NCBI GenBank assembly: GCA_014526335.1
Contig: JACTAT010000060.1
Span: forward strand, 8,287,686-8,351,685
DNA length: 64,000 nt
Source: Chrysaora quinquecirrha
Lineage: Eukaryota > Cnidaria > Scyphozoa > Semaeostomeae > Pelagiidae
Direction of reading: 5' to 3'
The number at the start of each line of letters is the position of its first letter. Within the stretch, counting starts at the first letter, position 1. The notes under the pieces are model-generated. The model was not told the origin of the DNA. It made no database searches and saw nothing but the letters and a program-made list of their open reading frames with translations. Below are positions 4,652-63,525 of this stretch, in pieces. The translations under genes and the position numbers were made by a program.

Positions 4652-7600
4652 TTAAGTTTTCAGTGGGTTATTATAAATGTCATTTCTTCGATGCTCCCAA
4701 ACAGGCATGGATTTACGAGTCCTTTGTAAATAGTCTTTATTAACATTTGCAAAGCAAAGTCCGATGCCTTCTTGACACTGAGCAACTATTGTACCCCATG
4801 GATCAACAACCTAGGAACAGATCAAAAAGAGGAGACGTGTGCAAAACTCGAAATATGTTACTAAGTGCTCCTTCTCTACACAAGTGCCAAATTTTGTCGA
4901 AAACTTTGAAGCAAAAGCCCAGTCAGCATATCTTGAAAGTGCATCATTTATTAAGGGTAGGTATTTTGATATATGGTGCTTTTTGGAAATCATAACTTCA
5001 AAGCCACTCCTTAACGGGATGTTATCTCTGATTTCGAAGTTCTTTATTCCATGGAATAGAGATGAAAATCAATCACGTATAGAAGATCTTGACAGGAACT
5101 GTGGAACGATGTTGTATTGTTGTTTCCAATGAACCCCACCTTTGTTTCGATGCCGCCATCCAGCTCTGACGGGGAAATGCTGACCCACATGGGCCATGAC
5201 GATGTGTTTCCTTTCTCTATAAATTGCCTTTACTATCTATCTACCAAATACTGCCTGTCTTCTTAAAACTGTCATGTCAGGGTGACAGGCCAGAGTGGAA
5301 AATCAGCTAGTACGTCTGCAAAATTTACTTTTCCCAAAATATCGGCAAACGGCAGCCTTTTCTTTGAAGTTCCAGTGGGAAGGTATGACACAGTCCATGT
5401 CCTGCACGGAATGGCTTACATCCGTTTAGAGGCCTCACTTTTTTCCTGACTGTGTTATTGATGAGCATATTCAAACCGTTGTCAAGAGATTTTCAAACTC
5501 TGGTAAACACCATATTTGAATCCCGTTTCGTGAAACGCTAAGTCTCCCTACGTGAATGGCCATTTCGCGGGCCTTTTATTTATCTACCAATGTTGCTCCA
5601 AGTCAAATCGTAAAAATATGCTTACTGCACCGCAAAGACAAACACTTTCACTTACCATAGCATGACCATATGATTGTCTATTCTTGCTGTGTTTGCCAGT
5701 CTGAGCGGCAGCGACAACATAACACTGGTTTTCTATTGCCCGTGCACGCAGCAATACCTATAATGGTACAATAAAATGTGTAGGTAATCACCATTAAAGA
5801 AAAAAGTGTTTGAGTTGTACGAAACTTCACTGTTATTGCGAAGAAAAGCTGAAACATCTTGCAACATTCGTAAAAGCTTTTTTCTTCTAACGCTTCTCGG
5901 AGTATAATCGTCAGAAACACTGTTTATACTCTTTTTTTCTGATGTTTATACACCGTGAGGAGTGTCGCACGAAAAAGGCTTTTAAGTAAGTTCAAAGAAT
6001 TTTTCGTCTTTTTTCGCAACTTGCATTATTACTTCAGCGACAACCAGCGACAACCAGCGACATGTTAGCGAAAACATTCCTCGGTCTCGCTGGGTATTTC
6101 TTTAACCTATTTTCGTAAAACTCGGCAACAGCAAGTGGCAATGGAAACAGCATTTTCAACGACAGCTAGAAAGGGGCTCCCTACAAAAGTAATTCCGAAA
6201 CTTCAGCGACAGCCAGCGACATGTTAGCGAAACATTCCTCGGTTTCGCTGGCTATTTCTTTAATCTATTTTCGTAAAACTCGGCAACAGCTAGTGGCGCA
6301 TTTTCAACGACAGCTAGAAAGGGGCTCCCTACAAAAGTAATTCCGAAACTTCAGCGACAGCCAGCGACATGTTAGCGAAAACATTCCTCGGTCTCGCTGG
6401 GTATTTCTTTAACCTATTTTCGTAAAACTCGGCAACAGCAAGTGGCAATGGAAACAGCATTTTCAACGACAGCTAGAAAGGGGCTCCCTACAAAAGTAAT
6501 TCCGAAACTTCAGCGACAGCCAGCGACATGTTAGCGAAAACATTCCTCGGTCTCGCTGGGTATTTCTTTAACCTATTTTCGTAAAACTCGGCAACAGCAA
6601 GTGGCAATGGAAACAGCATTTTCAACGACAGCTAGAAAGGGGCTCCCTACAAAAGTAATTCCGAAACTTCAGCGACAGCCAGCGACATGTTAGCGAAACA
6701 TTCCTCGGTTTCGCTGGCTATTTCTTTAATCTATTTTCGTAAAACTCGGCAACAGCTAGTGGCGCATTTTCAACGACAGCTAGAAAGGGGCTCCCTACAA
6801 AAGTAATTCCGAAACTTCAGCGACAGCCAGCGACATGTTAGCGAAAACATTCCTCGGTCTCGCTGGGTATTTCTTTAACCTATTTTCGTAAAACTCGGCA
6901 ACAACTAGTGGCGATGGAAACAGTAATTTCAACGATAGCTAGAAAGGGGCTCCCTGCAAAAGTAATTCCGAAACTTCAGCGACAGCTAGCGACATGTTAG
7001 CGAAAAAATTCCTCGGTTTCGCTGGGTATTTCTTTAACCTATTTTCGTAAAACTCGGCAACAGGTAGTGGCAATGGAAATAGCATTTTCAACGACAGCTA
7101 GAAAAAGTTTCCTTAGAAAACTATTTCTGAAACTTCAGCGACAGGCTTTACACATATACAGTCTTTAACCAGGGAGCGTCGTCGTTGATGAACAACCACT
7201 TGCGCTTGGAGATGGGTAATGAAACACACAAACGGGTACAATTATTGAATCAAAGGTATCAAACCGAAGCTTAGGTGAGATTTAGACCTATTTTTCTAAA
7301 ATTTCGAAAACTACCAACAAATAAAACTTTTAAGACTTACTTCCCAATGTGCCATCCCTGTTGGAACAGTGAATGCTGATGGAAACGTAAGGATTTCTGC
7401 ACCAAGCTGCGTCTGTGCAATCGAAAGCTCTGGAAATCTTAAATCATAGCACTGCTTTAAATTAAGGACTATCAATTTAATTAATTAGCTTGAAACTAGA
7501 AACGTGGATTCAATTTCATGCCTAGAATAATTTCAAAACTACCTTGAAAATAATCTTGAGGTAAAAAATGAAAGACTTTCTTCTGAACTGCAGTCTTTAA

Positions 7601-29800: not shown

Positions 29801-32800
29801 AGTTTTTAGCCAGATTTTACTGCAAAATTTATGGTTGAAAAACACCCGCCGGCTATGTAAGATTAAAAACCCCCGCAGGACTAGGCCTTGGCCAAACGAT
29901 CAAACATTGTTGGTCAAACATCGGAGATCGCAAAACATTGCTTCAAAAGCAGAATTCGCTCAGCAATGTTCTTGAAAAGCTTCAAAAACATTTTGTGCTT
30001 GTATAAAGCAAAAATAGTTGGACGAGCGATGCTTTTTGATCTGGCCAAACGGTCAAGCACTTTGCCTGACAAGCAAATTTAAGATGTTTGACGAACAATG
30101 TTTGATCGTTGGCTAGGGGCTAAGGGTTAAGATTCCCCCCCCCCCATTCGCTAAATTTCTCACCACCCTGTTTATGAAGACACCCCGTTTATTTGGCATT
30201 GTATAATAAACAGTTAGTTGTAGCATTGCATCGGTGGTTTTGCTGCTGACAGTCACTACGCAACGTGGCAGCAAGTTAAGTTAGAAACAAAACATAATTT
30301 AGTGTAGAAACAAATATATGTTTTGCATTCACAACAAATATATACAAATTATATGCATGGTGCTTAAGAAGGCTCAAAATAGCCGAAACGCAAAAAAGTC
30401 AAAAGGGAGGAGAAACTTTGGCCGTATGACTTGGAGAGCTACTCGGCGATTTCATTGAGCTCTATAGCTCAGTTGAAACGTCGTTGGCTCTCTGGTCATG
30501 TAGTACAGGTTCGAATCCCATCTACTGTGATACTTGTGGAAAAATCTATCCTAGTGTTCGCCATTTATAACAAATGCATATGTTTTGCAGATGCCGCATG
30601 ATCTACAAATCAGAAATTGCATTAAATATTGCAGAGCGTGGAAGAATCTCTCTTAGGCTTAGAATCACTTACATTGGTTCAGTTGGAACATCTGGGTTTT
30701 TGTCCTTTTTCAACCAATCGTCGAATAAATTTGTATTGGTGTCCGGTGCAGGAATCTAAAATAAAAAAAAAAACATCGTTCACGAGCTAAAGCAAAACCA
30801 ATTAATTATAGTCATAAGCTTTTCAAATCTAATCAGAATGCTGCTAAATATTTACCCTTTTTGTAGCTTCGAAGAATGCGTTGTCTAATTCAGGAGTCCC
30901 TCTAAGTCTCACAGTGTAGTTTCCTTCAACGAGAATTGACTTAATGAGAAAGAATACCCATTGAACGGGACGGGGTCAGCAATGCAACTTAGCCCAGCCC
31001 CAGTTATACGGACAAAGATTCGAGAAAGAAAATTTAATAATGTAAGGAAGCTTTTCAACAACAATTTCTAATGATATTAACTCTACCTTCAACTGCAATG
31101 TCAACGTTTAGGTATGCGACTGCACGTTCTTGCAGCATCGAAGCATGTTCCTGCAGCAGATAACACAAGGATTTTATTGCGAGAAAACGTCAAAGGTCTT
31201 ATCGTGCAAAGTTCACCTCAAAATGTCTGGGGTCACTTAAAAGTCAAAGGTCAAAATGGATCTTAAAAAGGTCAATTAAAAGTCAAAGGTTAAAATGGAT
31301 CTTAAAATCTCAGTATACCTCACCTCAACCCATTCCGTAGAGCCGTGGATTCCATATTCCTCAGCATCCCAGCTACACAACATGATGCTTCGACGAGGTC
31401 TCCAACCTAAAAATCAATTAAATTTTCCTTCAGTAAAAATAAAATGCTACAAGACAGATGGTTAAATATCAGTCGCGTAGCGGGCTAATGTTAAAGGCCC
31501 TCGAGTTCTAGGGTCCTCGATGGGACCAAAGGTATCAGACGATGCTTTATTCGAACATTCTGTGAATGATGGTATCATCCAAGGTATTATCCAAGGTATC
31601 ATCCAGGGTATAATCCAAGGCATCATTCAAGGTATTATCCAAGGTATCATCCAGGGTATAATCCAAGGCATCATCCAAGGTATTATCCAAGGTATCATCC
31701 AGGGTACAATGGAAGGTATTATCCAAGGTATCATCCAGGGTATAATCCAAAGTATTATCCAAGGTATCATCCAGGGTACAATGGAAGGTATTATCCAAGG
31801 TATCATCCAGGGTATAATCCAAAGTATTATCCAAGGTATCATCCAGGGTATAATCCAAGGTATTATCCAAGGTATCATCCAGGGTATAATCCAAAGTATT
31901 ATCCAAGATATCATCAAGGGTATAATGCAAGGTATTATCCAAGGATTATCCAAGGTATAGTCCGAGGTATTATCCAAGGTATCATCCAGGGTATAGTCAA
32001 AGGTATTATCCAAAGTATCATCAATGGTATAATCCGAGGCATTATCCAAGGTATCATCCAGGGTATAACCCAAGGTATTATCCAAGGTATCATCCAAGGT
32101 ATAACCCAAGGTATTATCCAAGGTATCATCCAAGGTATAGCTCAAGGTATTATCCAAGGTATCATCCAAGGTATAACTCATGGTATTATCCAAGGTATCA
32201 CCCAGGGTATAATGCAAGGTATTATCCAAGGTATCATCAAGGGTATAATCCAAGGTATTCACCAAGGTATCATCTAAGGTATCATCCAAGGTATCATCCA
32301 GGGTATAGTCCAAGGTATTATCCAAGGTATAATCCAGGGTATAATCCAAGGAATTATCCAAGGTATCAACCAGGGCATAATCCAAGGTATTATCCAAGGA
32401 ATCATCAAGGGTATAATGCAAGGTATTATATAAAAGTATCATCCATAGTATTATAAAAAGTATTATCTAAGGTATCATATAAGGTATCATCAAAGGTATC
32501 ATCTAAGGGTCTAAGGTATCATCTTAGATACTATCCAAGGTATCATCCATTGAATTTTCGAATTGGGAACAGGAAAAATACATAAATTGACACTTACAAG
32601 AGCAAATGTTTTTTGTGTTCCTCACTGACCAGCGACAAGTCATCAACATCGAGGATTATTTTGAAACACGTTTCACTATGAGGAAAAGGATCCATCGACG
32701 ATCTTATATGGAAACCAGGGTTTAAAGCCCCTCTCTAAGAGACTCTACCCCCTCAGAAATTTCTGTCAAAGACCCAGCCAACGAGAGCCTTTACAATCTC

Positions 32801-35800: not shown

Positions 35801-38800
35801 CGTTTAGTTTCAAAGCATGGTCAAAAATTTCCCAAAAATAAGAAAACTCTGATACCAAAACATGGTCCAAAATGGTCGAAATATAAGAAAACTTGGTACC
35901 AAAAGATGGTCCAAAAGGGTGAAAAAATAAGACAGTATCATAATATCATAGTTAATATATATTATGATTAGTTATTAACTATGATAATATGGCCAAAATG
36001 GTTCATAAAACAAGAAACTAGTCGTACTACTGAGATAAAGACGACTTACCTCGGCAGTTTTAGCAGGCGAGTACGCATTGAAAGGATAAACAATTTTACT
36101 GATATTTTCATCTGGTGTTATTGTTGGTTCGATCACTGTAAAGTCATGAATAACGGATCCATTCTGCCATTTAAACGTAACTTGTCCTGGTTTTTCTGGA
36201 TACGATAGAAGTATATTATACGGATGAATTTTCACTTTATCAAATCCATATTGACGCAGTTTGTTTGCCACATATACTCCTTGGTTTTTCATTTCCTCTG
36301 AGCCAGCGATGTGGGGATTTTTCGTCAAATATCTGCAAAAAAGATACACATTGTCAAGTTTATATCCATAGAAGTTTTAGAATTTACGTTGATTATTCAT
36401 CCTCTTATCAAAAGTCTCTGAGATGTACAAAGCATCTTTGGTCATGCCACTCGTTTTTGAAAAATAGAGAGGGGTGTCAGAGTAGTGGTACCATGGTACC
36501 AGAGGGATAGTACCTGGTACCAAATCCGGGAAAAAGGGTGGTACCTGGTACCAAATTCTGGAAAAAGGGTGGTACCTGGTACCAAATTCTGCAGAGATAC
36601 AACTAACATACAGGGTAGACTTAATACAACTAATAAACAAGCACAGTAGACTTAATACCTGAGCCATAGGCATCACTATTGAGTTGAATGGCTTGGCGCT
36701 AAAATTACCAGATTAAGCAATCTCGGTTTTATGCCAGCCTCGGTTTCATGAGCGACGACTGGGGCTCCTAGGCTCAGGTGAACAAAGAAGGAAATAGCAT
36801 TTGCAAGGAAATAATGAAAATGTAAAATATGCGAAATACGTCAATAAATAGTAAGAATGCAAGAATGCGGACACGATTTCGCAAGCATGCGTGTGCATTT
36901 AAGGACTCATTGAAAATCCAAACAACTCTAACATCCGATCCATACAGCTCTGCTATCAACGCAGTTGTCAATCAACAGAAAGTTCGCTCTTAACTGGATC
37001 CGATGCAATGCGCGTCGTTCCCGTACACCGACTTAATCGGCCACCCCGCATAACGTATGTGCAGTACAGTGGTGGGTGTGCAGTACAGTGGTGGATGTTC
37101 AGTACAGTGGAGGGATACCATGAGTACAGTGGAGGGATACCATGAGTACAGTGGTGGATGTTCAGTACAGTGGAGGGATACCATGAGTACAGTGGAGGGA
37201 TACCATGAGTACAGTGGTGGATGTTCAGTACAGTGGAGGGATACCATGAGTACAGTGGAGGGATACCATGAGTACGGTGGTGGATGTTCAGTACAGTGGA
37301 GGGATACCATGAGTTGCGTGGAGGGATACCATGAGTACAGTGGAGGGATACCATGAGTACAGTGGTGGATGTTCAGTACAGTGGAGGGATACCTGGAGTA
37401 CAGTGGTGGATGTTCAGTACAGTGGAGGGATACCATGAGTTGGGTGGAGGGATACCATCAGTACAGTGGAGGGATACCATGAGTACGGTGGTGGATGTTC
37501 AGTACAGTGGAGGGATACCATCAGTACAGTGGAGGGATACCATCAGTACAGGGGTGGATGTTCAGTACAGTGGAGGATACCATCAGTACAGGGGTGGATG
37601 TTCAGTACAGTGGAGGATACCATCAGTACAGTGGTGGGCGTGCAACTCATTAGAGAAATTGCAACGGTGTTGTATGAACGGGAAGTATCTCTAAGCAGAC
37701 AGTGATGCGTTTTGTGGGGCCTACATCTGTAAAAAAGAGCTCTAAACATACGCTTTTTTAATAGAAGAGTGTTCTGGGCTTCCAGTTTTTGAAAAGTCGC
37801 GCTAATTAATACAACTAGTTATTGATACCTGACTCCAGACGCTCGCTGCTTTCTTATAGAGAGTCAGTTGCGCGAAATGCCAACTCTAGACAACCATGAA
37901 ATATTGAACCATTCAAAAAGTGCTGCAAATTTCAATGAATCAAAGTCGAATTATATTTCCTTAGACAACACGATAAATACATAAATTCCGTAAGAATACT
38001 ACGAAACTCACCTATAGACCTAGGAATGGGTTATAGAAACTAAACAAAATGGCGGAACTGGCGGCTTCTTACTGCAAACCTAATCTAGAAATAGTAGCTA
38101 TTCAAACAGCAAAATACTCGTATACTAACCAAAGTTGAGTTTACCAACAAACCGAAAATCGTATTATGATGAAAAGTATTAACCGCAAATTATTGTTGTC
38201 AAATCAATAACTAGTTGTATTAATGAGCGCGACTTTTCAAAAAATGGACGCCCAGAACACTCTTCTATTAAAAAAGCGTATGTTTAGAGCTGTTTTTTAC
38301 AGACGTAGGCCCCACGAAACGCATCACTGTCTGCTTAGAGATACTTCCCGTTCATACAACACCGTTGCAATTTCTCTAATGATTTGCACGCCCACCACTG
38401 TACTGAACATCCACCCCTGTACTGATGGTATCCCTCCACTGTACTGAACATCCACCCCTGTACTGATGGTATCCCTCCACTGTACTGATGGTATCCCTCC
38501 ACTGTACTGAACATCCACCACCGTACTCATGGTATCCCTCCACTGTACTGATGGTATCCCTCCACCCAACTCATGGTATCCCTCCACTGTACTGAACATC
38601 CACCACTGTACTCCAGGTATCCCTCCACTGTACTGAACATCCACCACTGTACTCATGGTATCCCTCCACTGTACTCATGGTATCCCTCCACGCAACTCAT
38701 GGTATCCCTCCACTGTACTGAACATCCACCACCGTACTCATGGTATCCCTCCACTGTACTCATGGTATCCCTCCACTGTACTGAACATCCACCACTGTAC

Positions 38801-40117
38801 TCATGGTATCCCTCCACTGTACTCATGGTATCCCTCCACTGTACTGAACATCCACCACTGTACTCATGGTATCCCACAGTCCACTGTACTCATGGTATCC
38901 CTCCACTGTACTGAACATCCACCACTGTACTGCACACCCACCACTGTACTGCACATACGTTATGCAGGAGTGAAGTCAAAAGCACAGCACCACAGCAATC
39001 TGCCCCATTTTAAGCACAGTATCCATATTCCATTTCCAAAATTCTCCCCTGAATAGAAGAGCAAAAGGGGCAACAGAAAGCGCACCATAATGTAAAAGAA
39101 AATATAAAACCGATTTCCTAAACCCGCTCTCTCGTTGTAGCCCCTTTCCGTACAAGGGCCTGTAAGAGGCAACGGTAGCCTTGAAATTGCCATTCAAAAA
39201 CAGAAGCCTTGTGAATAATATTCCGCATGAAAATCTAATCTTTTGAATATGTCTTTGCATAGGGTTTACAGTTGTATGTCAACCCAGACAGAAGGGACTT
39301 AGTAAGTAAATACTAGATTTAATATCTTGGAAATTTGATGTTTCTTTCTCAGGTTACCTTTGCAAAAAAGCAGCAAGCACATGGGCCAGGGATAACTAGG
39401 GACTTTACCTTCCGGGGGTTGAGTAACTCGAAAAAATCCTTGTTCGCCGTGCACTTTAAAAAATCCGCATAAATTCTCCAAGAAATCCGAAAATCCACCA
39501 AACTTTTTTATATACACACTTTTTTTTATAAGAATACAGTCTATAAGAATATTCAGGCTCAAAATTGCCAAAGAACAATGGAAATTTAAGAATAACAATG
39601 GAAAAGTTCGAGCCTTGGCAAAAATTAGGATATTCTTATAAAAAAAGTGTGTATCCCAAGAAGACTTGGATAACAATGAAAAATTGAAAAAGGGAGTACA
39701 CTACCCTTACTGAAGTGTAAAGATTAAATCTTTTTCCCTTGCTTTTATAGAAGAAGAACATAAATAAACGCAAGTCGAAGCGAAACACTCTTTCAAGAGC
39801 GCAAAACACCAGCGTGAAAACAAGTTCAATAATATCAACAAGATACGCATTAATGATAAATAACAAACTCAAACTTACTCTAAATTTTTCTTTATATTAT
39901 CAGCTTTCATTTCATCTAGGATCTTCACATGTTGTTTAAATGCTTCTTGAGTCATTTCTTGGGCACTTTTCTTTGGCGTTGGAGGCTCACTCTTTTTGCT
40001 GCATCCTATAGCTGACCTGATGCCCACACCAATCAAAGCTCCAATGATTATCAACAAAAAGCAAAAAGCCAAAAATAAAAACAAACGCTTTCCGCGTAGT
40101 TCCAGTCCTTGGGCCAT
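26891..40117 (-). CDS. FOLH1: glutamate carboxypeptidase II / NAALADase homologue (M28 peptidase)
   Basis: Seventeen exons: 39879-40117, 36050-36332, 35345-35467, 35036-35216, 34399-34492, 34050-34124, 33774-33859, 33548-33667, 31324-31406, 31087-31150, 30856-30923, 30673-30755, 29676-29766, 28397-28658, 27678-27759, 27195-27287, 26891-27074; about 737 aa (human GCPII 750). Start [13 protein letters not shown], one hydrophobic helix ([18 protein letters not shown]), so type II membrane protein. Zinc and catalytic residues are present: His in GNHRDSW, Asp in GAGDASSG, Glu-Glu in DAEEYG, Asp in YLNVDIA, His in MYHSLHDTF. The family releases C-terminal glutamate from N-acetyl-Asp-Glu or folyl-polyglutamate outside the cell. 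Exon 35036-35216 needs three one-base insertions (runs at 35184, 35141, 35115) to read [23 protein letters not shown] and [13 protein letters not shown]1 versus NAALAD2 orthology is not resolved. Confidence 0.94.
27800..28265. repeat. imperfect 80-100-bp tandem repeat, CCTCCCT-rich
   Basis: TTTCCAGGCAAAA recurs near 27819, 27920, 28013, 28102 and 28184, separated by AAACACCTCCCTCT and AACGCCTCCCTG words. In a peptidase-gene intron. Confidence 0.85.
28765..29100. mobile_element. degenerate AAACATT MITE copies
   Basis: GGCCAAACGATCAGATATG, GTTTGCCAAACATTTG and AATGCTTGAATGTTTGGCAA are family words. The internal segment CTCTTATAAGTAAT is shared by the sequence at 28688 and 28928, suggesting a local duplication. 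In a peptidase-gene intron. Confidence 0.6.
29884..30121. mobile_element. palindromic AAACATT MITE, copy
   Basis: GGCCTTGGCCAAACGATCAA at the left, TTTGATCGTTGGCTAGGGGC at the right; the interior has AAGCAATGTTTT and TGCCTGACAAGCAAATTT words. In a peptidase-gene intron. Confidence 0.87.
30459..30532 (+). mobile_element. tRNA-like SINE head or tRNA pseudogene
   Basis: CTCTATAGCTCAGTTG (A-box-like) and CAGGTTCGAATCCCATCT (B box) at tRNA spacing. The acceptor ends GCTCTAT and TACTGTG do not pair, so not a functional tRNA. Confidence 0.55.
31560..32552. repeat. 12-bp tandem array GGTATTATCCAA
   Basis: About 80 copies of a 12-bp unit (GGTATYATCCAR), often in 36-bp triplets with ATT, ATC and ATA variants. 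Because 12 is a multiple of three, long frames stay open on both strands (Ile-Ile-Gln-Gly on +, Thr-Leu-Asp-Asp/Asn on -). The array lies wholly inside the peptidase-gene intron 31407-33547 and is not a gene. Confidence 0.95.
33870..34008. repeat. GATGATGAT microsatellite
   Basis: Imperfect GAT/GAC trinucleotides in a peptidase-gene intron, next to the exon at 33774-33859. Confidence 0.88.
35690..35935. repeat. ~47-bp tandem repeat
   Basis: About five imperfect copies of TAGTACCAAAACATGGTCC, then AAAATGG and AAAAATAAGAAAAC words, in a peptidase-gene intron. Confidence 0.8.
36485..36592. repeat. 31-bp tandem repeat with KpnI-like palindromes
   Basis: GGTACCTGGTACCAAATTCT followed by GGAAAAAGGGT recurs three times; each unit contains two GGTACC palindromes. 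In the first intron of the peptidase gene. Confidence 0.85.
37048..38965. mobile_element. non-autonomous foldback element, 1.9 kb
   Basis: Left arm 37048-37826 and right arm 38203-38965 are inverted copies. Ends are GCATAACGTATGTGCAGTAC and GTACTGCACATACGTTATGC; inner edges are TACAACTAGTTATTGAT and ATCAATAACTAGTTGTA. The outer three quarters of each arm is a tandem array of two modules, about 22 bp (GTACAGTGGAGGGATACCAT) and 19 bp (GTACAGTGGTGGATGTTCA). The 376-bp spacer has no convincing ORF. This is the classic foldback layout. It sits in intron 1 of the peptidase gene (36333-39878). No clear target duplication is seen. Confidence 0.93.
39512..39654. mobile_element. CTTATA-family hairpin, AAGAATA version
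   Basis: ATACACACTTTTTTTTATAA with GAATA at the left, and TATTCTTATAAAAAAAGTGT with GTAT at the right, are inverted repeats. AACAATGGAAA is repeated inside. In intron 1 of the peptidase gene. Confidence 0.8.
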
Positions 40118-45300: not shown

Positions 45301-48300
45301 AACAACCTCGTCCCCAGGCCCCAAATCAAACTTCCTCGAATCTCAACCGTCAAATTGATCTTGGCCCTGGTACCGGCCACAAAATCTGCCAAAATACTGG
45401 CAATTTTGGCCTAGGCATAAAAACAAGATGTAGATTCGGAAAGCAGATGTTTTTAGAATGGCAATGCAAAGACTTTCACTGATAACTGTAAGGCAAGATA
45501 CAATATCTCACGTAGCATCATTTTTAGACAGGAAAATTACTACAACCATCTAGCAAACTGCCTAACCCTAAATTTTATTTCGGATTCGAGTTCTCCATGT
45601 TGAAGAGTATCTAAAACTGCCAGGGGCCATTTTGGGCGTGGCCTGGTTTTCACGTGATTCATGACCACACCTACCCACGGTCTGAAAAAAATTTTTTTTG
45701 GAATTTTTGGAAAATTTTTTCAACAATGTGTAGTGTATCACAAGGCAAGAAATAAATTATAAAACACTTACTACTTTCCTCTTACCATTCGGGAGGTACA
45801 GCGTCTCAAAGTTTGTGTTGTTGTTGTTGTTAAAAAACATAAAGATGTCAATATTGCGCGTATAAACTGGAGTTTTCGAGTTGGAATCCATAGTTATAAT
45901 CAAGATAGTTTAAGTGTTGTATTTACACTATTTACAATGTATCTTTGCCTTGTCTGGTAGCTTTACTGGCATATCAAGGCCCCGGGGGAGGTACTTAGTA
46001 TAATTAGGGTACGGGTATGTGCCGCCCATATGGGTGGGTTTTGGGCACTGAAATTCTCTAAACATGGGTATGATTGTAACCTAAACCCCATAAAAGTGGG
46101 TGGCAAATTGAAGAAAAGTCGAAAGTTTAACTTTAATTCGGTCAGAAAAGTGGCAAAATCGCCCCAAAGATGTTCGTAGTACAATATCAAGCAATAATAA
46201 GGTCTACAAAGTCTTATTATTCTCATATTCCGCTTATTTTTACTCATAAAATAGGGTCTGTTTCTGCAAAGGTTTACATTATAAGTGGGTGGGTTTCCGA
46301 AATCTGGGCGGCACATCCCCGTCCATTCATAAGTGAAGTACCCCCGGGATCAAGGCAGCCATTCGTCGCACAAATCTTCACTGGACAGAAAGTCTGAAAC
46401 CTCCCAATCGCTTTCATCTGCTTCCGATAATATGGCTGTTAGGTTGGATTGTATTGACAACGTTGTGCTTTGCCTAGCCATAAGTCCTCTCTCGATAGCA
46501 CTAAAGGCATCCAAACGTGTCACAGGTTTCAAAACGGAGAAGGGACGAGTTAACTCACACCTCCTCTACATGGATGACCTGAAAATCTTTGCCCCTTGCA
46601 AGACCTCTCTTGAGAAGAGCATGGATGTTACCATGCGAGCGTCAAAAGCCATAGGCCTGGAACTGGGATTTAAGAAATGTAGCATTGCCCACAAATATGT
46701 TATCACAAACAGTATCGAGATGGTCGATGATACTGAGCCCCAAACATATCGACAAATCCCAATCCTGCAATCAGATGACACATACAAGTACCTTGGACTG
46801 GATCAGCTGCTAACGGTCAACAGAGAGAATACAGCGAGCCGAATACTCACGAAAGTGAGTAAGCAAGCTCGCCAGATTCTCAAAAAAACCTTAACAGCAA
46901 ATGTGTGACTAAGGCCATAAACCAGAAAGTAGCAGGAGTACTCCGTTACTTTCTGGCGGCCGGCCTTAGGACCAAAGGTGATATGAGACGCCTTGACGCT
47001 AAGATACGAGCCCACCTGCGGAAAGTGAGATATCAAGATGGTTCAGCGTCGGCCCATCGACTATACTTGCCAAGAAAGGCCGGTGGCAGGGGTATTTGCA
47101 GGCTGGAGGAGCTATACTGTCAAACCGCCCTCTCTGTCGTATGCTATCTTAGCGAGGCAGAAGACGAGTTTGCACAGTTGCTTTGCCGAGACATTAGAGC
47201 CCTGGAGACGGACAATCAGGGCGTAGGAGAGCTGCAATTATCGCCAAAGCAAACAGGGTGTTTCAGTCTTTGAGCATGACTGAATACTCTGTCGAGGAGA
47301 CGGTGAAACGCAACGGCATTCAAGTGCGAAATCATAGCCGGAAATTGAAATCCACAGTAGCCAAGACATATGAGCAGCGAACAAAAGCAGCCATATACAA
47401 CACAAAATGCCATACTAAGTATGGCAAACTGGTTGAACGTGAGAATGTGTATATACCCAACTTACGCACAAATGGCTCGTCGAAGGCTTACTGCCACCCC
47501 AGATAGAGGGCTACGTCATGGCCATCCAAGATGGCACCTTGTTATCAAGGCAGCACATGCTGCCACGGGCAACCAGGCGTTACGACAATGTCGACTATGT
47601 GGCAAAGGCAAAGATGGTCTGACACATATCATATCCGCATGTGGCAAACACAACTTTGGGGCTAACAAAGAAAGGCATGATGAAGTTGCAAAGGTGGTGC
47701 TCAACCACCTATTACAGAAGTATGACATTGAAATCTGCCCGGCGGAAAAAGCCCCAAAGGCGGAATATAAGAAAGATCAATGCAGGGTTCTCTGGGATAC
47801 GCAGCTCAAACCTGTAAAGCGAATATTCCGGCCGGACCTAGTGGTATGCGATAGGCCGGCGAAAGAAATCATCATAATCGAAGTCACTGTGCCGTATGAT
47901 AAACGCCTCACACAGGCATATGAAGAGAAAACAAATAAGTATGCAAAGCTCAAGCGCGATCTTTATAGAGCCAACAAATCCAAAGGTTATAAAACTGTAA
48001 CCTTACTAGTGGTGACCATCGGAGCTTTAGGATGTGTCAGTAAGCAAGTAACAGCCGAGTTACAGGGACATAGACTCTTCAAAGATTGTGTCCCAAGGCT
48101 TATGTCCGATGTTCAACGAGCAACTTACGTCGGCACTCAAATGACGGTCAAAAGGCATCTCGTCATGTGATTCCCTCAGGGATCCGCTCTTTTATGTGGC
48201 TAGCGTGTATGGTAACATACAGCCGCGACATACCACGTCAAATACGTGAGTGATCTGTATTGGATAAAAGCACTCATGTCAAGCCAACGATATCGAAGAC

Positions 48301-50142
48301 ATAAAGGAATTCATTCGAAAAAACATTTACAGTGGAAAAGCAGGCAAGGCATACTTGAGTATAAGAATACGACTATATAAAGAGATGAAAACCAAATCAT
48401 CCATGGGCATACCACCTGATCCCAAGTCAGTAGAACAGGCAATCAAACGCTGCCATCATCAAGCATTTTTATGGTATCATTGTCACATGCCGCAAGTGCC
48501 ATCGATACTTTTTGACGAAAACGGATGGCGATGGGACCCAGTAGAAAATATCGTCTCGCCAGTATGGTTTACTGGAAGCCAGGTACCAGAGTCACAGCGC
48601 CGAAACCAAAAAAAAGAAAACGTAAGATATCTTCTATTCTTGCAGCCACGAAAGATATCTCAGAAGACGAATATCGCCTAGCATTTACGATGGTGATGAC
48701 GAAACAATACAATCCAACCCAGAAACAGCCATATTATCGGAAGCAGATCAAAGCGATTGGGAGGTTTCGGACTTTCTGTCCAGTGAAGATTCGTTCGACG
48801 AATGGCTGCCTTGATACTCAAGTAAAGCTACCAGAGAAGGCAAAGATACATTGTAAATAGTGTAAATACACCACTTAAACTATCTTGATTATAACTATGG
48901 ATTCCAACTCGAAAAATCCAGTTTATACGCGCAATATTGACATCTTTATGTTTTTAACAACAACAACAACACAAACTTTGAGACGCTGTACCTCCCGAAT
49001 GGTAAGAGGAAAGTAGTAAGTGTTTTATAATTTATTTCTTGCCTTCTGATACACTACACACTGGTGAAAAAATTTTCCAAAAATTCCAAAAAAAATTTTT
49101 TCAGACCGTGGGTAGGTGTGGTCATGAATCACGTGAAAACCAGGCCACGCCCAAAATGGCCCCTGGCAGTTTTAGATACTCTTCAACATGGAGAACTCGA
49201 ATCCGAAATAAAATTTAGGGTTAGGCAGTTTGCTAGATGGTTGTAGTAATTTCCCTGTCTAAAAGGCAAAATACCCCCCCTCCGATGTAGAAGCCCCCTT
49301 CGATGTAGAATAAGTTATGCTGCGGGGCCTACTGCCTCTGAGAAGCAGGCTGACTATTGTAAAACATAAACGTTTTTTCTACAGTGAATCAAAGCAGCTC
49401 AGTCGTTGCACATGATCATCTAGATGACGAACATTCCTCAGCAATAAACTACACAATCGGAATAAGAAGAAGACCAGTTTACTTCATAACAACAACAATC
49501 ATCCCTATGGTACTACTATCAGTCATCTCCTCCACAGCGTCTATACTCCCTGCGATGACTGGTGATAGAATTGCTTTACTGATCACGTGCCTGCTTGCGT
49601 CTATTGTCTATCTGGACACGTTATTCAAGTATTTACCGGAATCATCGACAAGTTTTCCAATAATAATCATGTGGACATTGTTGAATCTTGCTTTTACAGC
49701 CTTGCAGATAATCTTGGCAAGTGTCTGCCTCAACTGGGCGAATAAGGAAGAAAAAAAGAAAAAGCCAGGGAAGAAGGCCATTTTTATTGTTTTTTATTTG
49801 TTTAGATATCTCATCTTTTTCCTGCCGATGATTTACACGAAAATCAAAGAATGCAGAGAGACAAGAAGACGGAAGGTAACAGTTGACATGGTCGATGCGA
49901 AGGAAAGTAGCACCGTTGAAGAAGATGCCCCCAAGAGCAATCCAGGCATTGATGATGCAGATGCCAATTCACAAGAAGCAAGCGAAGATTCCAAAAAAAG
50001 TTTCAAAAATGCAATAAAAATAATCGATTATTTTGCATTGTTGCTATCCTTTGTGTCCCTAGCGACCATTGGAGCTGCAGTTTATATCATAATGTTTAGC
50101 AGAAAAGAAGTCTCGATGTGTAATATATTGAGCCACCTGTAA
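42350..50142 (+). CDS. nicotinic-type Cys-loop ligand-gated ion channel subunit
   Basis: Six exons in phase: 42350-42413, 42970-43148, 43424-43468, 43940-44046, 44956-45215, 49385-50142; 470 aa. Signal peptide (HVIFLILISGCILGIIGG). Extracellular domain: WTPTLVVHE (loop A region) and the 13-residue Cys loop CEINACVFPVDNERC. Four membrane helices: PVYFITTTIIPMVLLSVISS, IALLITCLLASIVYLDTLF, PIIIMWTLLNLAFTALQII and YFALLLSFVSLATIGAAVYI, with a charged M3-M4 loop. FPVD and the IRRRPVYF entry to M1 are nicotinic. The acidic residue of TGDRIAL before M2 suggests cation selectivity (inference). No vicinal Cys pair is seen before M1, so it is not a typical alpha subunit, and an extra Cys lies inside the Cys loop. 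The last intron (45216-49384) contains a 3.7-kb composite element. The agonist cannot be predicted. Confidence 0.93.
42729..42925. repeat. AAGC tetranucleotide microsatellite
   Basis: Runs of CAAGCAAGCAAGC with AGGC variants in intron 1 of the receptor gene, 45 bp before exon 2. Lys/Gln/Ala and Leu/Cys/Ala frames are by-products. Confidence 0.93.
44348..44526 (-). mobile_element. tRNA-derived SINE, copy 5
   Basis: GAAGGTGAAGGTGAAATGGG, AGGATCTCAGTAGTAGGTTA, GACCTCGACCCTG, GAGTCAGCTGGAT, CAGCACCTTC. Reverse orientation in a receptor-gene intron. The B box region reads GGGCTCGAAAAAT, so it is mutated. Confidence 0.85.
45981..46348. mobile_element. MITE with CCCGGGGG ends nested in the left arm
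   Basis: Starts CCCGGGGGAGGTACTTAGTA and ends in the inverse, TGAAGTACCCCCGGG; GGGTGGGTTT and GGCGGCACAT words are also inverted inside. It is flanked by the 8-bp direct repeat ATCAAGGC. The other arm of the host element has the unoccupied site with a single copy (48808-48815, GCCTTGAT on +), confirming the insertion. Confidence 0.92.
46448..48170 (+). pseudogene. non-LTR reverse transcriptase with restriction-like endonuclease, decayed
   Basis: Coding similarity runs through at least three frames. Reverse transcriptase: CLAISPLSIALK and the catalytic HLLYMDDLKIFA, then KYLGLDQ. It shifts frame near 46905 (TKAINQKVAGVLRYF, then RKAGGRGICRLEELY), again near 47270, and the last frame is open to 48170. 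That frame has a C-x2-C-x8-H-x4-C knuckle (CRLCGKGKDGLTHIISAC) and the PD-(D/E)xK-type FRPDLVVCDRPAKEIIIIEV, which together mark the R2/NeSL/Hero group of LINEs that cut DNA with a restriction-like enzyme. The N-terminal half of the RT and any DNA-binding fingers are missing. Breaks make it non-functional as read, though some shifts could be sequence errors. Confidence 0.85.
48270..48815 (+). pseudogene. unrecognised transposon-associated ORF, C-terminal part
   Basis: The frame has KDIKEFIRKN, CHHQAFLWYHCHMPQ, FDENGWRWDPVENIV and SPVWFTGSQ, then shifts near 48590 into PKKRKRKISS and again to a third frame ending SDWEVSDFLSSEDSFDEWLP-stop at about 48813. Basic KKRKRK could be a nuclear signal. 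The final acidic tail lies in the inverted arm and is repeated on the - strand at 46353-46440. I do not recognise the family; its position makes it part of a mobile element, perhaps its original protein. Confidence 0.55.
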
Positions 50143-55657: not shown

Positions 55658-58600
55658 AGCAAGCAAGAAAGCAACCAAGCAAGCAAGAAAAGCAAGCAAC
55701 CAAGCAAGCAAGCAAGTGAGCAAACCAACCAAACAAGCAAGCAAAACAAACAAAGCAGGCAAGCAAGCTAGGCAAGCAAGCTATTAAGTTAGGCAGAACT
55801 AAGCAAAGGAAGCAAGCAACTGAGCAAGCAAACAAGGAAAGCAAGCAAACAATCAAGCAAAGTAAGCAAACTTGCTTAAGAACCTTCGATGTCTAAATCC
55901 CCTTAAATTAAGCCCGGTTTCATTCATGCAAAATTCTTCGCGACAAGGGAAAGAGGATGCAACTTGTACCAAATGAGATGAAGTATTTATGAAGCTTACT
56001 GTTAGATGTCCTTCCTGATGACCTGGAAAGTGTTTATAAAGATAATCTGAGATAATCATCTTCAATATCGAATCTCCAAAATATTCAAGTCGTTGATTGC
56101 TGCCACTGCAAAGGAATACTAAAACAAATTAGAGATGAGTTTTAGACGCCATGAACATAGATGATAGAACATGGTGATAATCGTACTTTTCTGAAAACAT
56201 ATCAAAAAAATTCTACTTCAACCTGGGTATTCCAAATGGCCTCTCAAAAGTATTAAAGAGGGCCTTTTTATTCGAATGAGCAGAATAGACAGAACATTAT
56301 AATCAATTTCGCCCTTCGATTGCTGCCTCCTTAAGGCAAAATGGGGTTTGCTTAGGGCCTGACCAAACAACCAAACATTGTTTATCAAACATTTGAAATT
56401 TGCTTCTCATTTGACCGTTTAGCAACGTTGCAAAACATTGGACACGCAAAATTGCTTAGCAATTCTTTTGAAAAAATTCAAACACATTTCTGCTTGTCAC
56501 AACCAAAAATTTTTAATGGGCAATATTTAGCGTCGTGGCCGAACGGTCAAACTTTTTGTTTGACAAGCATTCTCTATAGATGTTTGTCGAAAAATGTTTG
56601 ATCGTTTAGCCAGGGCCTTAAAACATTTGAAACTTCCTTGTCAAGCAAAATGTTTTACTGTTTGACTATGTCGGAAAACAATGTTAGTCAAATATTTTTT
56701 GCACAAACAACGCGCAACTAATTCTGCTCATGCCTTACAAGTAGTGTTTGGCGACGTGGCTAAACGTTCAAACATTTTGTTTGACAAGCAAATTTCGTAG
56801 ATGTTTAACGAAAAATGTTTGATGGTCCTAGCCAGAGCCTAACATTTGAAACTTCCTTGTCAAGCAAAATGTTTCACTGTTTGACTATGTCGGAAAACAA
56901 TGTTAGTCAAATATTTTTTGCACAAACAACGCGCAACTAATTCTGCTCATGCCTTACAAGTAGTGTTTGGCGACGTGGCTAAACGTTCAAACATTTTGTT
57001 TGACAAGCAAATTTCGTAGATGTTTAACGAAAAATGTTTGATGGTCCTAGCCAGAGCCTAACATTTGAAACTTCCTTGTCAAGCAAAATGTTTCACTGTT
57101 TGACTATGTTGGAAAACAATGTTAGTCAAGCATTTTTTGCCAAAACATTGCGCAACTAATTCTGCTCATCCTTACAAGTAATGTTTTGCGACATGGGCAA
57201 ACGTTCAAACATTTTGTTTGACAAGAAAAATGTATAGATGTTTGACGAACAATGTTTGATCATTTGGCCTTACGATACGCTCCTCCCTAACCAAACTGCA
57301 TGGGCATGTATCAAGGTGTAATTTCACCTTACCCTATTACATTACTGTAACTCGACGAAGGATGCTTGAAGGCTCTTGCAAGAAGACAAATGTGGCTGAA
57401 CTCCACTCCAATCTGCTCTTCTAATTCCACAAATTTCTTAAAAAAAACAAATTGGGACAATTTCAGTAAATTAACAGAAATTCTAATGTGAGGAATAAAA
57501 GATTGCTAGAAATATCCATTCAAAGGACTAATGCTAGTTTTATATGTGAAGGTCTAAAACTGTAGGTCTATATGTATAGGTCTGTAGGTCTATATGTGTA
57601 GTGCTAAAAGGGTCTAAAACTATAAAATAATTAAATATATAATATATAAGATATACACAGCAATTTAATAATGGCTAAAATCCTGATAAAAATTTGGCCC
57701 CTCCCCCCACGAAACGTAATTAAATTCACTGCTTTAAAATCTCGCACACCCTTGCTGGAAATGCTATTGATTTCAGCGAGCAAAGTCCCTTTAGAAATCA
57801 TCAATCAATGCTCTTCGCCCCCTGAAACTAGGAAAACTGAAACTTATAAAAAAATAACAGTTTCTTTGTATCCGAAAGCCGCATGAGATAAGACGAAAAC
57901 CTTAAAGTGACATATAAAGCTGAACTGATCCACAAACATCTATCACTGAGTATGACAGATGTTGAAACAAAGATTCGAACTTACATTTAGAACAAACAAA
58001 ACCGTTTAATGATCAAAAGCTTACAAAGTTTGTTAATTTAAAGCGAGGTGGATTACAGTAATTCATTTACCTGAAGAAATTCATATTTTGATATCAAATG
58101 TCTGTCACCATTAGGCTCTTTGATCTAAAAACAAAAATTTTAAATTATAATATTAAAAATTTTAACTCTTCAATCATGATAGCATATAAATTCTTAAAGA
58201 CACGTTTTTCATAAGCTACATCTTTGTTGGTTAATGTGTTATTATCGTTGTGAAATTGCGATAAACAGCGGAAACATTTTCGGGCATACTTAAAAGCTTT
58301 TTTCGTCTGACACTCCCAAGAGAAAACAATCCTCGTTGTAATTTTCCGCACACTCTGGATGATCCATGGCAGAATCATGTTTAAGGGTGGGTTGTTGCCT
58401 AGAGTTGCGGGGTGGTTGCTCCCTTTGCCGAAAGTTGTGGTTACAGTGCGCTTTTCTTTCTGATTGGTGCTTTTCGAGCCGCATCTGGGTAGATATTCCG
58501 CCTTAGTCTATTGTTTCGGTCTGTTTCTGACGTTCATACTCTGAGGAGTGTCAGACGAAAAAAGCTTTTGAGTATGCCCGAAAATGTTTCCGCTGTTTAT

Positions 58601-59711: not shown

Positions 59712-59809
59712 CTGAAAATAAAAGTTAAATCCAAGTCACATTAACATTGTAGAGTGGACTTTCTATTAGTTGCCTAAATGTCACCCCCCTACGGAAGCCG
59801 ATATGTGCC

Positions 59810-60118
59810 ATACAAAGTTTATTACAATGCATACAAAGTTTATTTGAGTGCATACAAAGTTTATTTGAATGCATACAAAGTTTATTTGAATGCATACAAA
59901 GTTTATTGGAATGCATACATAGTTTATTGTAACGTATACAAAGTTTATTACAATGCATGCAAAGTATATTGGAATGCATACAAAGTTTATTGTAACGTAT
60001 ATACAAAGTTTACTACAATGCATACAAACTTTACTGTGACGAATACAAAGTTTGTTGGAATGCATACAAAGTTTATTAGAATGCATTTACAAGCTTTAGT
60101 AGAATGCATACAAAGTTT
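59810..60118. repeat. left 21-bp tandem array of the foldback element
   Basis: Units of TTTATTGCAATGCATACAAAG type. Read on the - strand each carries AATAAA and ATGCAT. About 15 units, with GTAACGTATAC and GTGACGAATAC variants also found on the right arm. Confidence 0.93.
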
Positions 60119-60385
60119 ATTCTGTTCTACGCGTACCCGAGGCTAGGTAGACTTGCAGTGGAGGCTAGGCTTATTATTTCCGGCCACAACCACACACCAC
60201 AAACCACACATGTCGCCGTGGGTTCAAGTGCTGTACACCTTCTGCTGTTCTGTCTTGAAAAATGGTTCTTTCGTGCAGCCATTGCAAGAGAATCTGCTCT
60301 CAATCCTGGCTTTATTGTTCAGGATGTGGGAGAAATCTACAAAATAGCTCAACTAGGGATCAAATGAGCCAAGCCAATGCCACAT

Positions 60386-61169
60386 TCAATAGGGGCATCC
60401 TTTAATTTCTTTCATACAGTTAAGGTAAAGTTGTGCAGGAACAGAGGGCAAATTATTCGACTTGACAACTTTCAACCACAAAATTTTTCTGCTGTAGCCA
60501 TCAATCGCCCCATGGATGGGGAATCCATAGGGCTTCAGTTTGTCGTAACCTCAAGATATAAAGGTAAAACTGGTCAACAACATTAAGAAAGGATTATTAA
60601 CAAAAGTATTGAAGGATTATTAACCTGATTTAGAAATAATTATTAACATAGGTTCAAAGGTCATAAACAGCAAAGCAGATACAAACAGAATTTTTTTTGC
60701 AAATTAATTGCGATTGCATTTGCAACACCATGGTGATGGTACTCTACTCCTACTCACCATCAACATGCCAGCTGAAGTTTGGCCCATATGCTAGGTATCG
60801 TCTTCGTATTAGTCTCCTCTGTTGTCTTAAATTAGAAGCTTCAGGGTCTATCTCTCGTAAAATATTTGCTACTGAATCTCTTGGAACAATAAGGTGGTAC
60901 TTTAGACGAAGCATATGCCACATGGACCTGTAACCACGAAGGTATCCAGCGGAATCCATAACTTCCTGTACGATTCTCTGACGGGCAATATTTAGGTCTA
61001 CGTTATTACCACGACGCCTCAGGTTCAGTTTCTCTAACTTTCTCATTAATGTACGAAGACTAATCTCTATGCCGTGGTTATTTCTCAAAAGCGCCAAAAT
61101 TGTTCTATACTGAAAACCCGCATAAAAATATCGCTGCAAGATATGATCAGCATCCTCTTCGTCCGCCAT
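60386..61169 (-). pseudogene. integrase-type (DDE) transposase, two exons, truncated
   Basis: Exon 60758-61169 starts MADEEDADHILQRYFYAG and runs through a helix-turn-helix-like region (LRTLMRKLEKLNLRRRG) and YRSMWHMLRLKYHLIVPR to GPNFSWHVD, where a consensus donor GGTGAGT follows. The frame resumes after an acceptor at 60549 with GYDKLKPYGFPIHGAIDGYS, then RKILWLKVVKSNN. The first two catalytic aspartates (HVDGYD and AIDGYS) are visible. The frame ends at 60386 after MKEIKGCPY, before the third acidic residue, so the enzyme as read is inactive; a one-base loss there is possible. The fold is the retroviral-integrase/IS3 type. Confidence 0.85.
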
Positions 61170-61225
61170 GTTTACGGAAAGAGAGAAGGAGGTTGGGTTG
61201 AGCCGTGCCGTGGCCCTCCCAATAA

Positions 61226-63386
61226 ACTTTGTATGCATTCCAACAAACTTTGTATGCATTCTAATAAACTTTGTATTCGTAACAATAAAGTTTGTATGCA
61301 TTGTAATAAATTTTGTATATACATTGTAATAAACTTTGTATACGTTACAATAAACTTTGTATGCATTGCAATAAACTTTGTATACGTTACAATAAACTTT
61401 GTATACGTTACAATAAATTTTGTATGCATTCAAATAAACTTTGTATGCATTCGAATAAACTTTGTATGCATTCCAATAAACTTTGTATGCATTGTAATAA
61501 ACTTTGTATATACATTACAATAAACTTTGTATGCATTGTAATAAACTTTGTATGCATTGTAATAAACTTTGTATACGTTACAATAAATTTTGTATGCATT
61601 CCAATAAACTTTGTATGCATTCAAATAAACTTTGTATGCATTCAAATAAACTTTGTATGCATTCAAATAAACTTTGTATGCATTCTAATAAACTTTGTAT
61701 TCGTAACAATAAAGTTTGTATGCATTGTAATAAACTTTGTATGCATTGTAATAAACTTTGTATACGTTACAATAAACTTTGTATACGTTACAATAAATTT
61801 TGTATGCATTCAAATAAACTTTGTATGCATTCAAATAAACTTTGTATGCATTCAAATAAACTTTGTATGCATTCTAATAAACTTTGTATTCGTAACAATA
61901 AAGTTTGTATGCATTGTAATAAATTTTGTATATACATTACAATAAACTTTGTATGCATTGTAATAAACTTTGTATGCATTCCAATAAACTTTGTATGCAT
62001 TGTAATAAACTTTGTATTCGTAACAATAAAGTTTGTATGCATTGTAATAAATTTTGTATATACATTACAATAAACTTTGTATGCATTGTAATAAACTTTG
62101 TATTCGTAACAATAAAGTTTGTATGCATTGTAATAAATTTTGTATATACATTACAATAAACTTTGTATGCATTGTAATAAACTTTGTATGCATTGTAATA
62201 AACTTTGTATGCATTGTAATAAACTTTGTATGCATTGTAATAAACTTTGTATGCATTCCAATAAACTTTGTATGCATTGTAATAAACTTTGTATTCGTAA
62301 CAATAAAGTTTGTATGCATTGTAATAAATTTTGTATATACATTACAATAAACTTTGTATGCATTGTAATAAACTTTGTATGCATTCCAATAAACTTTGTA
62401 TGCATTGTAATAAACTTTGTATTCGTAACAATAAAGTTTGTATGCATTGTAATAAATTTTGTATATACATTACAATAAACTTTGTATGCATTGTAATAAA
62501 CTTTGTATGCATTGTAATAAACTTTGTATGCATTGTAATAAACTTTGTATGCATTCCAATAAACTTTGTATGCATTGTAATAAACTTTGTATTCGTAACA
62601 ATAAAGTTTGTATGCATTGTAATAAATTTTGTATATACATTACAATAAACTTTGTATGCATTGTAATAAACTTTGTATGCATTGTAATAAACTTTGTATA
62701 CGTTACAATAAATTTTGTATGCATTCCAATAAACTTTGTATGCATTCAAATAAACTTTGTATGCATTCAAATAAACTTTGTATGCATTCAAATAAACTTT
62801 GTATGCATTCTAATAAACTTTGTATTCGTAACAATAAAGTTTGTATGCATTGTAATAAACTTTGTATGCATTGTAATAAACTTTGTATACGTTACAATAA
62901 ACTTTGTATACGTTACAATAAATTTTGTAAATAAACTTTGTATGCATTCAAATAAACTTTGTATGCATTGTAATAAACTTTGTATGCATTGTAATAAACT
63001 TTGTATGCATTGTAATAAACTTTGTATGCATTGTAATAAACTTTGTATGCATTCCAATAAACTTTGTATGCATTGTAATAAACTTTGTATGCATTGTAAT
63101 AAACTTTGTATGCATTCAAATAAACTTTGTATGCATTGTAATAAACTTTGTATTCGTAACAATAAAGTTTGTATGCATTGTAATAAATTTTGTATATACA
63201 TTACAATAAACTTTGTATGCATTGTAATAAACTTTGTATGCATTGTAATAAACTTTGTATGCATTGTAATAAACTTTGTATGCATTGTAATAAACTTTGT
63301 ATGCATTCCAATAAACTTTGTATGCATTGTAATAAACTTTGTATGCATTCCAATAAACTTTGTATGCATTGTAATAAACTTTGTAT
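61226..63386. repeat. right 21-bp tandem array of the foldback element
   Basis: About 100 units of AATAAACTTTGTATGCATTSY type. Variants GTATACGTTAC, GTATTCGTAACAATAAAG and GTATATACATTAC recur in a fixed order, giving higher-order repeats (TATTCGTAACAATAAAG starts near 61273, 61708, 61887, 62017, 62102, 62292, 62420, 62590, 62822 and 63149). The 21-bp unit keeps all frames open; frames up to 320 codons are artefacts. Confidence 0.95.
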
Positions 63387-63525
63387 GGCACATATCGGCT
63401 TCCGTACCCCCCTCTAGATAAGTAGTTTTTAAAAGGTCTTTCAACCCCTCTGCTCCAGCCAGGACCCCGAGGTTATTAAAATCTAGGGGGTTCATGTTAT
63501 GCATTAATCATTGGAGTTCAAGCAA

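What the first reader, a model, noticed from the sequence alone, without database searches (positions are those of the whole stretch)
59788..63408. Foldback DNA transposon with its own intron-containing transposase and 21-bp array arms
Seen: perfect 20-bp termini, short flanking direct repeats (CCCCCC or ACCCCCCT), and arms that are nearly pure 21-bp tandem arrays, about 15 units on one side and 100 on the other. They surround an integrase-type transposase split by one intron. Known: foldback elements with repeat-filled arms exist (Drosophila FB, Galileo), and integrase-like eukaryotic transposons (IS3EU, Ginger) usually have short plain TIRs. An integrase-type transposase inside foldback array arms may be an undescribed family. 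The transposase is truncated here.
Basis: partly seen in the sequence, partly recalled or inferred. Interest (0 to 1): 0.85.

Follow-up and report, generated by a model that had tools for sequence, protein, structure and literature searches.

The report
IS3EU transposon with tandem-repeat arms
This is a decayed copy of a known kind of jumping gene (IS3EU), unusual because both of its ends are built from many head-to-tail copies of a 21-base unit that probably serve as extra docking sites for its transposase.

Summary
A 3,617-bp element (59790-63406) has a 55-bp perfect terminal inverted repeat beginning TACGG, CCCCCC on both sides, and arms with 15 and 103 copies of a 21-bp unit around a truncated, one-intron, integrase-type transposase. 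The protein matches Pfam PF24764. TA..TA termini with 6-bp duplications are the published signature of the IS3EU superfamily (passages), so the superfamily is known. Its foldback-like array arms appear new: I found none described in the papers searched. Arms and gene very likely belong together: the arms are colinear unit by unit (0 of 1000 permutations), and one independent relative, P0046, has a 21-bp-period array directly upstream of its transposase (0 of 5000 shuffles). This copy lacks the second and third catalytic residues, so it should make no active transposase. Likely mechanism, inferred: the units are transposase-binding sites, as in Galileo, IS21 and Tn7-type ends. A possible zinc-ribbon ORF beside the left arm hints at a recombinant interior or a split gene. 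The host genome could not be searched.

The parts
59784..59789 (.). left copy of the target-site duplication, CCCCCC
59790..60121 (+). left arm: unique 19-bp end TACGGAAGCCGATATGTGC, then a tandem array with 15 anchor sites, period 21 bp
60262..60405 (+). possible zinc-ribbon ORF (47 aa, CxxC-10-CxxC), facing inward from the left arm; resembles the N-terminus of 26 of 121 IS3EU homologs
   Evidence: Pfam only sub-threshold; best of 2073 segments, E 0.0036
60386..60549 (-). transposase exon 2, truncated: ends ..IKGCPY and a stop before the second and third catalytic residues
60550..60757 (-). intron, 208 bp, GT-AG, phase 1, after ..WHVDG
   Evidence: same site in P0014 and P0046
60758..61169 (-). 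transposase exon 1 (ATG at 61169): N-terminal helical domains, weak HTH_21, start of the integrase core
61220..63406 (-). right arm: tandem array with 103 anchor sites, period 21 bp, and the same 19-bp end (63388-63406); 55-bp perfect terminal match with the left arm
63407..63412 (.). right copy of the target-site duplication, CCCCCC

Best explanation
A defective copy of an IS3EU-superfamily DNA transposon from a lineage whose terminal inverted repeats became foldback-like: a unique 19-bp end followed by an inward run of 21-bp units. Shown here: termini, duplication, arms, intron, protein family, truncation, and an array upstream of the transposase in one independent relative. Inferred: the transposase binds the 21-bp units with its N-terminal domains; 21 bp is two turns of B-DNA, so the sites face one side of the helix. 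The units next to each end would form the synaptic complex and the further units act as extra docking sites that raise affinity and specificity. Because the array stops about 50 bp from the start codon, the promoter probably lies in or beside the arm, so transposase binding could also regulate its own gene. The ancestral arm had about 15 distinct units (still seen on the left); the right arm later grew about sevenfold by duplication of blocks of units. This copy could move only if an intact relative supplied transposase.
For: PF24764 E 4.8e-11. TACGG..CCGTA ends and 6-bp duplication against the published IS3EU signature (passages). Arms colinear: score 434 against mean 374, maximum 425 in 1000 unit-order permutations. 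P0046: 7-residue (21-bp) period upstream of its transposase, 22 of 35 against a shuffle maximum of 13 in 5000, aligned with the window's array-plus-exon reading over 88% of the query. Window with P0014 and P0046 form one clade, 100/94, with homology lost at the same intron site. Right arm: 15 unit types in 102 units, exact internal repeats up to 302 bp. Precedents for repeat-bearing ends as binding sites: Galileo, IstA, TnsB with 22-bp sites overlapping by 1 bp (passages). The model of full-length relative P0001 has IstA and TnsB-type transposases and retroviral intasomes as best Foldseek matches.
Against: One genomic copy only; P0046 is known as protein, and its other end is unseen. It is the only one of 121 homologs with such a repeat, though only 11 extend 40 or more residues upstream. 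With the innermost 330 bp of the right arm alone, 53 of 1000 permutations reach the real colinearity score. Unit homology with P0046 is weak: of four units tested by shuffling, one stands out (11 of 1000 dinucleotide shuffles reach it), three do not (223, 71, 332). The whole-chain TM-scores to IstA and TnsB are low (0.22-0.26, rmsd about 20), and the isolated N-terminus gave no Foldseek match at E 0.001. Binding to the units is not shown.
Confidence: 0.75

Rival explanations
1. Nested or chimeric element: a foldback array element of another kind was invaded by, or captured, a piece of an IS3EU transposase gene, so arms and gene have different histories.
For: The window holds a second, unrelated foldback-like element with about 20-bp repeat units (37045-38968), so array arms are not peculiar to this one. 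The transposase is incomplete.
Against: The termini themselves are of IS3EU type, TACGG with a 6-bp duplication. P0046 has an array of the same period at the same place upstream of a related transposase. No second set of ends was found inside by the TAYGG scan.
Confidence: 0.1
2. Interior made by fusion of two 5' halves: besides the right-hand transposase 5' half, the left side carries the 5' start (zinc ribbon) of another transposase copy in the opposite orientation, as in a snap-back rearrangement. This concerns the interior only and is compatible with the IS3EU assignment.
For: The zinc-ribbon ORF 60262-60402 (+) is the best of 2073 six-frame segments for a profile from 26 homologs, E 0.0036, next 0.22, with the commonest spacing (18 of 26); it faces inward from the left arm and its homology ends about where the opposite-strand transposase homology ends.
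Against: The match is short; Pfam is sub-threshold (DZR E 0.012). In the direct search of this stretch a - strand piece (60161-60250) with a stop inside matches the transposase core about as well (P0056, E 5.6e-4, against 2.8e-4 for the zinc ribbon; reversed control 0.003), which would rather be gene debris. A separate small convergent gene in the intact element would look the same as a fusion.
Confidence: 0.35
3. The arrays have no role in transposition: a minisatellite that happened to arise in the end sequence grew neutrally by slippage or unequal exchange and was carried along.
For: The right arm shows recent block duplications, exact runs of 302, 229 and 226 bp. The two arms differ about sevenfold in size.
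Against: Both arms have the unit, in inverted colinear order; P0046 keeps an array of the same period; 11 of the first 14 positions of the unit are at least 0.95 conserved over 20 distinct 21-mers whereas positions 15-16 vary. None of these shows function.
Confidence: 0.35

Closest known systems
IS3EU superfamily (Repbase name; not separated from GingerRoot in PMC10045372)
   Same: PF24764-type DDE transposase, TA..TA ends with TAYGG, 6-bp duplication
   Different: Tandem-array, foldback-like arms; I found none described for IS3EU in the passages read or by searches. Repbase entries themselves were not available.
Styx (Zymoseptoria), an active IS3EU-related element
   Same: IS3EU-type DDD/E transposase, 6-bp duplication; a copy with a non-functional integrase reading was the source of a new insertion (PMC10853768, passages)
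   Different: Fungal, about 7.9 kb, four coding sequences; no array arms in the passages read
Galileo (P superfamily) of Drosophila
   Same: Long TIRs with tandem repeats that hold extra transposase-binding sites (PMC3688188, PMC3573991, passages)
   Different: P-type transposase with a THAP domain; repeat units far longer (about 210 bp in the F group)
Tetris and Tm1 (foldback elements placed in Mutator)
   Same: TIRs with tandem repeats of variable number, unequal arms (PMC4079207 passages; PMC3169594 abstract)
   Different: Duplications of 8-10 and 9 bp; Mutator-type or unknown transposase
Tn7-type (TnsB) and IS21 (IstA) ends
   Same: Several repeats per end read by the transposase; TnsB sites 22 bp overlapping by 1 bp, that is 21-bp spacing; IstA needs two complete repeats per end (PMC9371665, PMC10122671, passages)
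   Different: Bacterial; two to four sites per end, need an AAA+ partner; no sequence relation found

Membership tests
IS3EU | IS3-like DDE transposase of the IS3EU type | tested here: met
   PF24764 E 4.8e-11; 446 homologs at E 0.001. That PF24764 corresponds to IS3EU is recalled, not given by a call.
IS3EU | TA..TA termini (TAYGG..CCRTA) | tested here: met
   TACGG..CCGTA; signature from passages of PMC10045372 and PMC12730594
IS3EU | target-site duplication usually 6 bp | tested here: met
   CCCCCC both sides; 8-bp ACCCCCCT possible if ends are shifted; a single insertion
IS3EU | complete DDE catalytic triad | tested here: inconclusive
   The copy is truncated before the second and third residue; relatives have D-58-D (50 of 56) and D-33-E or D-40-E (32 of 34)
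Foldback (structural class) | long TIRs made largely of tandem repeats | tested here: met
   arms of 332 and 2187 bp, 15 and 103 anchor sites
Mutator-type foldback | Mutator transposase and 8-10 bp duplication | tested here: not met
   the transposase is PF24764 and no Mutator-type family was listed; the 8-bp reading of the flanks alone would fit
Ginger1/Ginger2 | 4-5 bp duplication and retroviral-type integrase (rve) | tested here: not met
   6-bp duplication; no PF00665 listed for the window protein at E up to 1, although two relatives match it weakly
GingerRoot | 6-bp duplication, TA..TA or TG..CA ends, own transposase group | tested here: inconclusive
   same ends and duplication; PMC10045372 could not separate it from IS3EU; no GingerRoot sequence was available
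IstA/TnsB-like multi-site ends (working principle) | the transposase binds each repeat of the end | not testable with these tools
   spacing agrees; needs a DNA-binding assay

The most novel reading that the evidence does not exclude
A lineage of IS3EU transposons shared by at least two hosts evolved ends made of dozens of 21-bp, helix-phased transposase sites that also serve as promoters for inward genes, with the zinc ribbon of the transposase split off as a separate small gene driven by the opposite arm: a eukaryotic counterpart of Tn7/IS21 multi-site ends, amplified up to a hundred sites.
Probability: 0.18. Interest if true: 0.68.

Novelty: new variant of a known kind. Interest (0 to 1): 0.5.

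Why it matters
Foldback ends have been tied mostly to Mutator-type transposons, with exceptions such as the P-type Galileo (PMC4079207 passages). Finding them on an integrase-type IS3EU element supports the idea that tandem-repeat ends evolve repeatedly because extra transposase sites pay off. The 21-bp spacing equals that of TnsB sites (22 bp overlapping by 1 bp), which gives a concrete, testable prediction about end recognition in IS3EU. It also shows one way in which a transposon end can seed a short-unit satellite array.

Tried and rejected

Rows left out: one search found 446 homologs and listed 120; only these plus P0121 were analysed. The tree used 62 of these 121 plus the window, with P0046 cut to the part after its array.

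Full report
Observation. The sequence at 59784-63412 reads CCCCCC - TACGGAAGCCGATATGTGC - array - interior - array - GCACATATCGGCTTCCGTA - CCCCCC. The two ends match perfectly for 55 bp. A scan of the window for TAYGG..CCRTA pairs with a 6-bp duplication (one mismatch allowed) and at least 13 of 20 matching terminal bases returns this pair alone, at 20 of 20; 2 of 20 shuffled windows return one pair each. The left array holds 15 anchor sites, the right 103; the spacing is 21 bp in 12 of 14 and 92 of 102 intervals. Four exact 12-14-mers of the unit occur nowhere else in the window.

Interior. On the - strand the transposase reading starts at 61169, about 50 bp from the inner edge of the right array. 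It has a GT-AG, phase-1 intron of 208 bp at 60550-60757 and stops at 60386-60388. The joined 191-residue protein matches Pfam PF24764 (integrase core, E 4.8e-11) and weakly HTH_21 (E 1.1e-4, below its cut-off). It has 446 homologs at E 0.001, of which 120 were listed; named ones include proteins of Xenia, Nematostella, Paramuricea, Mercenaria and Mytilus. Relatives continue with RTDCGTEN and NQRIE motifs: D-58-D in 50 of 56, and D-33-E or D-40-E in 32 of 34 that hold the motifs searched for. Taking these as the second and third catalytic residues follows the DDE pattern of IS3-type enzymes (recalled). This copy lacks both and should be inactive.

Classification. Kojima 2023 states that complete IS3EU families always have TA..TA termini and that their duplications are usually 6 bp (PMC10045372, passages). 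Kojima 2025 gives TAYGG..CCRTA ends, TIRs over 30 bp and 6-bp duplications for IS3EU of rust fungi (PMC12730594, passages). The element meets these. Ginger (4-5 bp duplications) and Mutator are not met. GingerRoot cannot be separated from IS3EU here. No Repbase sequence was available, so the assignment rests on signature and protein family; that PF24764 is the IS3EU transposase family is recalled.

Do arms and gene belong together? First, the arms are colinear: the left inner units align to the right arm with score 434, against a mean of 374 and a maximum of 425 in 1000 permutations of unit order. With only the innermost 330 bp of the right arm, 53 of 1000 permutations reach the real score, so the best colinear copy lies further out. 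Second, relative P0046, in one clade with the window and P0014 (support 100/94; next P0013 of Xenia, 99/90), has 76 residues before its transposase start that repeat every seven residues (22 of 35 positions; maximum 13 in 5000 shuffles). That is a 21-bp DNA period. Of 121 homologs only P0046 shows this, but only 11 extend 40 or more residues upstream. P0046 is known as a protein only, and its other end is unseen. Back-translated, one window unit fits it better than nearly all dinucleotide shuffles (11 of 1000 reach it) while three others do not (223, 71 and 332 of 1000), so homology of the unit itself is only suggested. P0014 and P0046 both lose homology exactly at the intron site, whereas 100 of the 103 proteins with the motif continue with Y or H.

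History of the arms. The left arm has 12 types in 14 complete units; the right arm only 15 types in 102, with exact repeats of 302, 229 and 226 bp at offsets of 1125, 405 and 1050 bp. I infer an ancestral arm of about 15 mostly distinct units and a later, block-wise growth of the right arm. Assembly error in the long arm cannot be excluded. Over 20 distinct 21-mers, positions 1-14 are 0.85 or more conserved except position 8 (0.70), while positions 15 and 16 (0.55, 0.40) and also 19 and 21 (0.70, 0.60) vary.

An unexpected part. Between the transposase stop and the left array, the + strand ORF MVLSCSHC..CSGC.. (60262-60402) resembles the zinc ribbon that begins 26 of 121 homologs. A profile from those 26 ranks it first of 2073 six-frame segments of the window (E 0.0036; next 0.22), with the commonest spacing, CxxC-10-CxxC, seen in 18 of 26. 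Pfam gives only sub-threshold matches, for example DZR at E 0.012. In the direct tblastn of this stretch the zinc ribbon scores E 2.8e-4, but a - strand piece (60161-60250, with a stop inside) matches the transposase core at 5.6e-4, and the reversed control reaches 0.003. So both are weak, and part of this stretch may be gene debris. If the zinc ribbon is real, the interior is either a tail-to-tail fusion of two 5' halves or intact elements carry the zinc ribbon as a separate convergent gene. I cannot decide.

Literature. Of 35 papers that hold 'IS3EU' (30 listed), one also holds 'foldback', there in a cited title. 'IS3EU' with 'cnidarian' gave two papers, 'foldback' with 'transposase' and 'Ginger' two, 'foldback' with 'transposable element' and 'cnidarian' two, all seen as listings. 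Two papers report satellites with similarity to IS3EU, in Crassostrea and Tribolium (passages). I found no description of array-armed IS3EU in this library; Repbase entries and most subscription papers were not searched.

Limits. The host-genome tool did not complete (19 calls). Verdict: a real, well-bounded, defective IS3EU element with foldback-type arms, a new variant of a known kind.

Noticed in passing
window 37045-38968: A second foldback-like element: arms of about 28 and 27 repeat units with 19/22-bp spacing, one 443-nt stretch of the arms 100% complementary, inner inverted stretch of 204 nt at 97%, termini CCYGCATAACGTATG; no duplication longer than 3 bp found and no sequence shared with the IS3EU element.
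   Followed up: partly
window 60161-60250 (-): A short - strand piece with a stop inside that weakly matches the transposase core (P0056, E 5.6e-4), apart from exon 2; perhaps debris of another copy.
   Followed up: no
L002 267-386: A 23-bp, five-copy tandem array about 1 kb before an IS3EU-like match in a contig filed under a sponge-symbiont MAG, probably host DNA.
   Followed up: partly
window 31571-32549: Tandem array with 24/36-bp period, about 39 copies of 24 bp, open in several frames.
   Followed up: no
window 6045-7144 and 56526-57260: Tandem arrays with long periods, 466/307/159 bp and 219 bp.
   Followed up: no
window 3568-4365 (+), 49363-50142 (+), 46333-48170 (+): ORFs that look, by recall only and without a search, like a cyclin-dependent kinase exon, the membrane part of a Cys-loop receptor, and pieces of a reverse transcriptase.
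   Followed up: no
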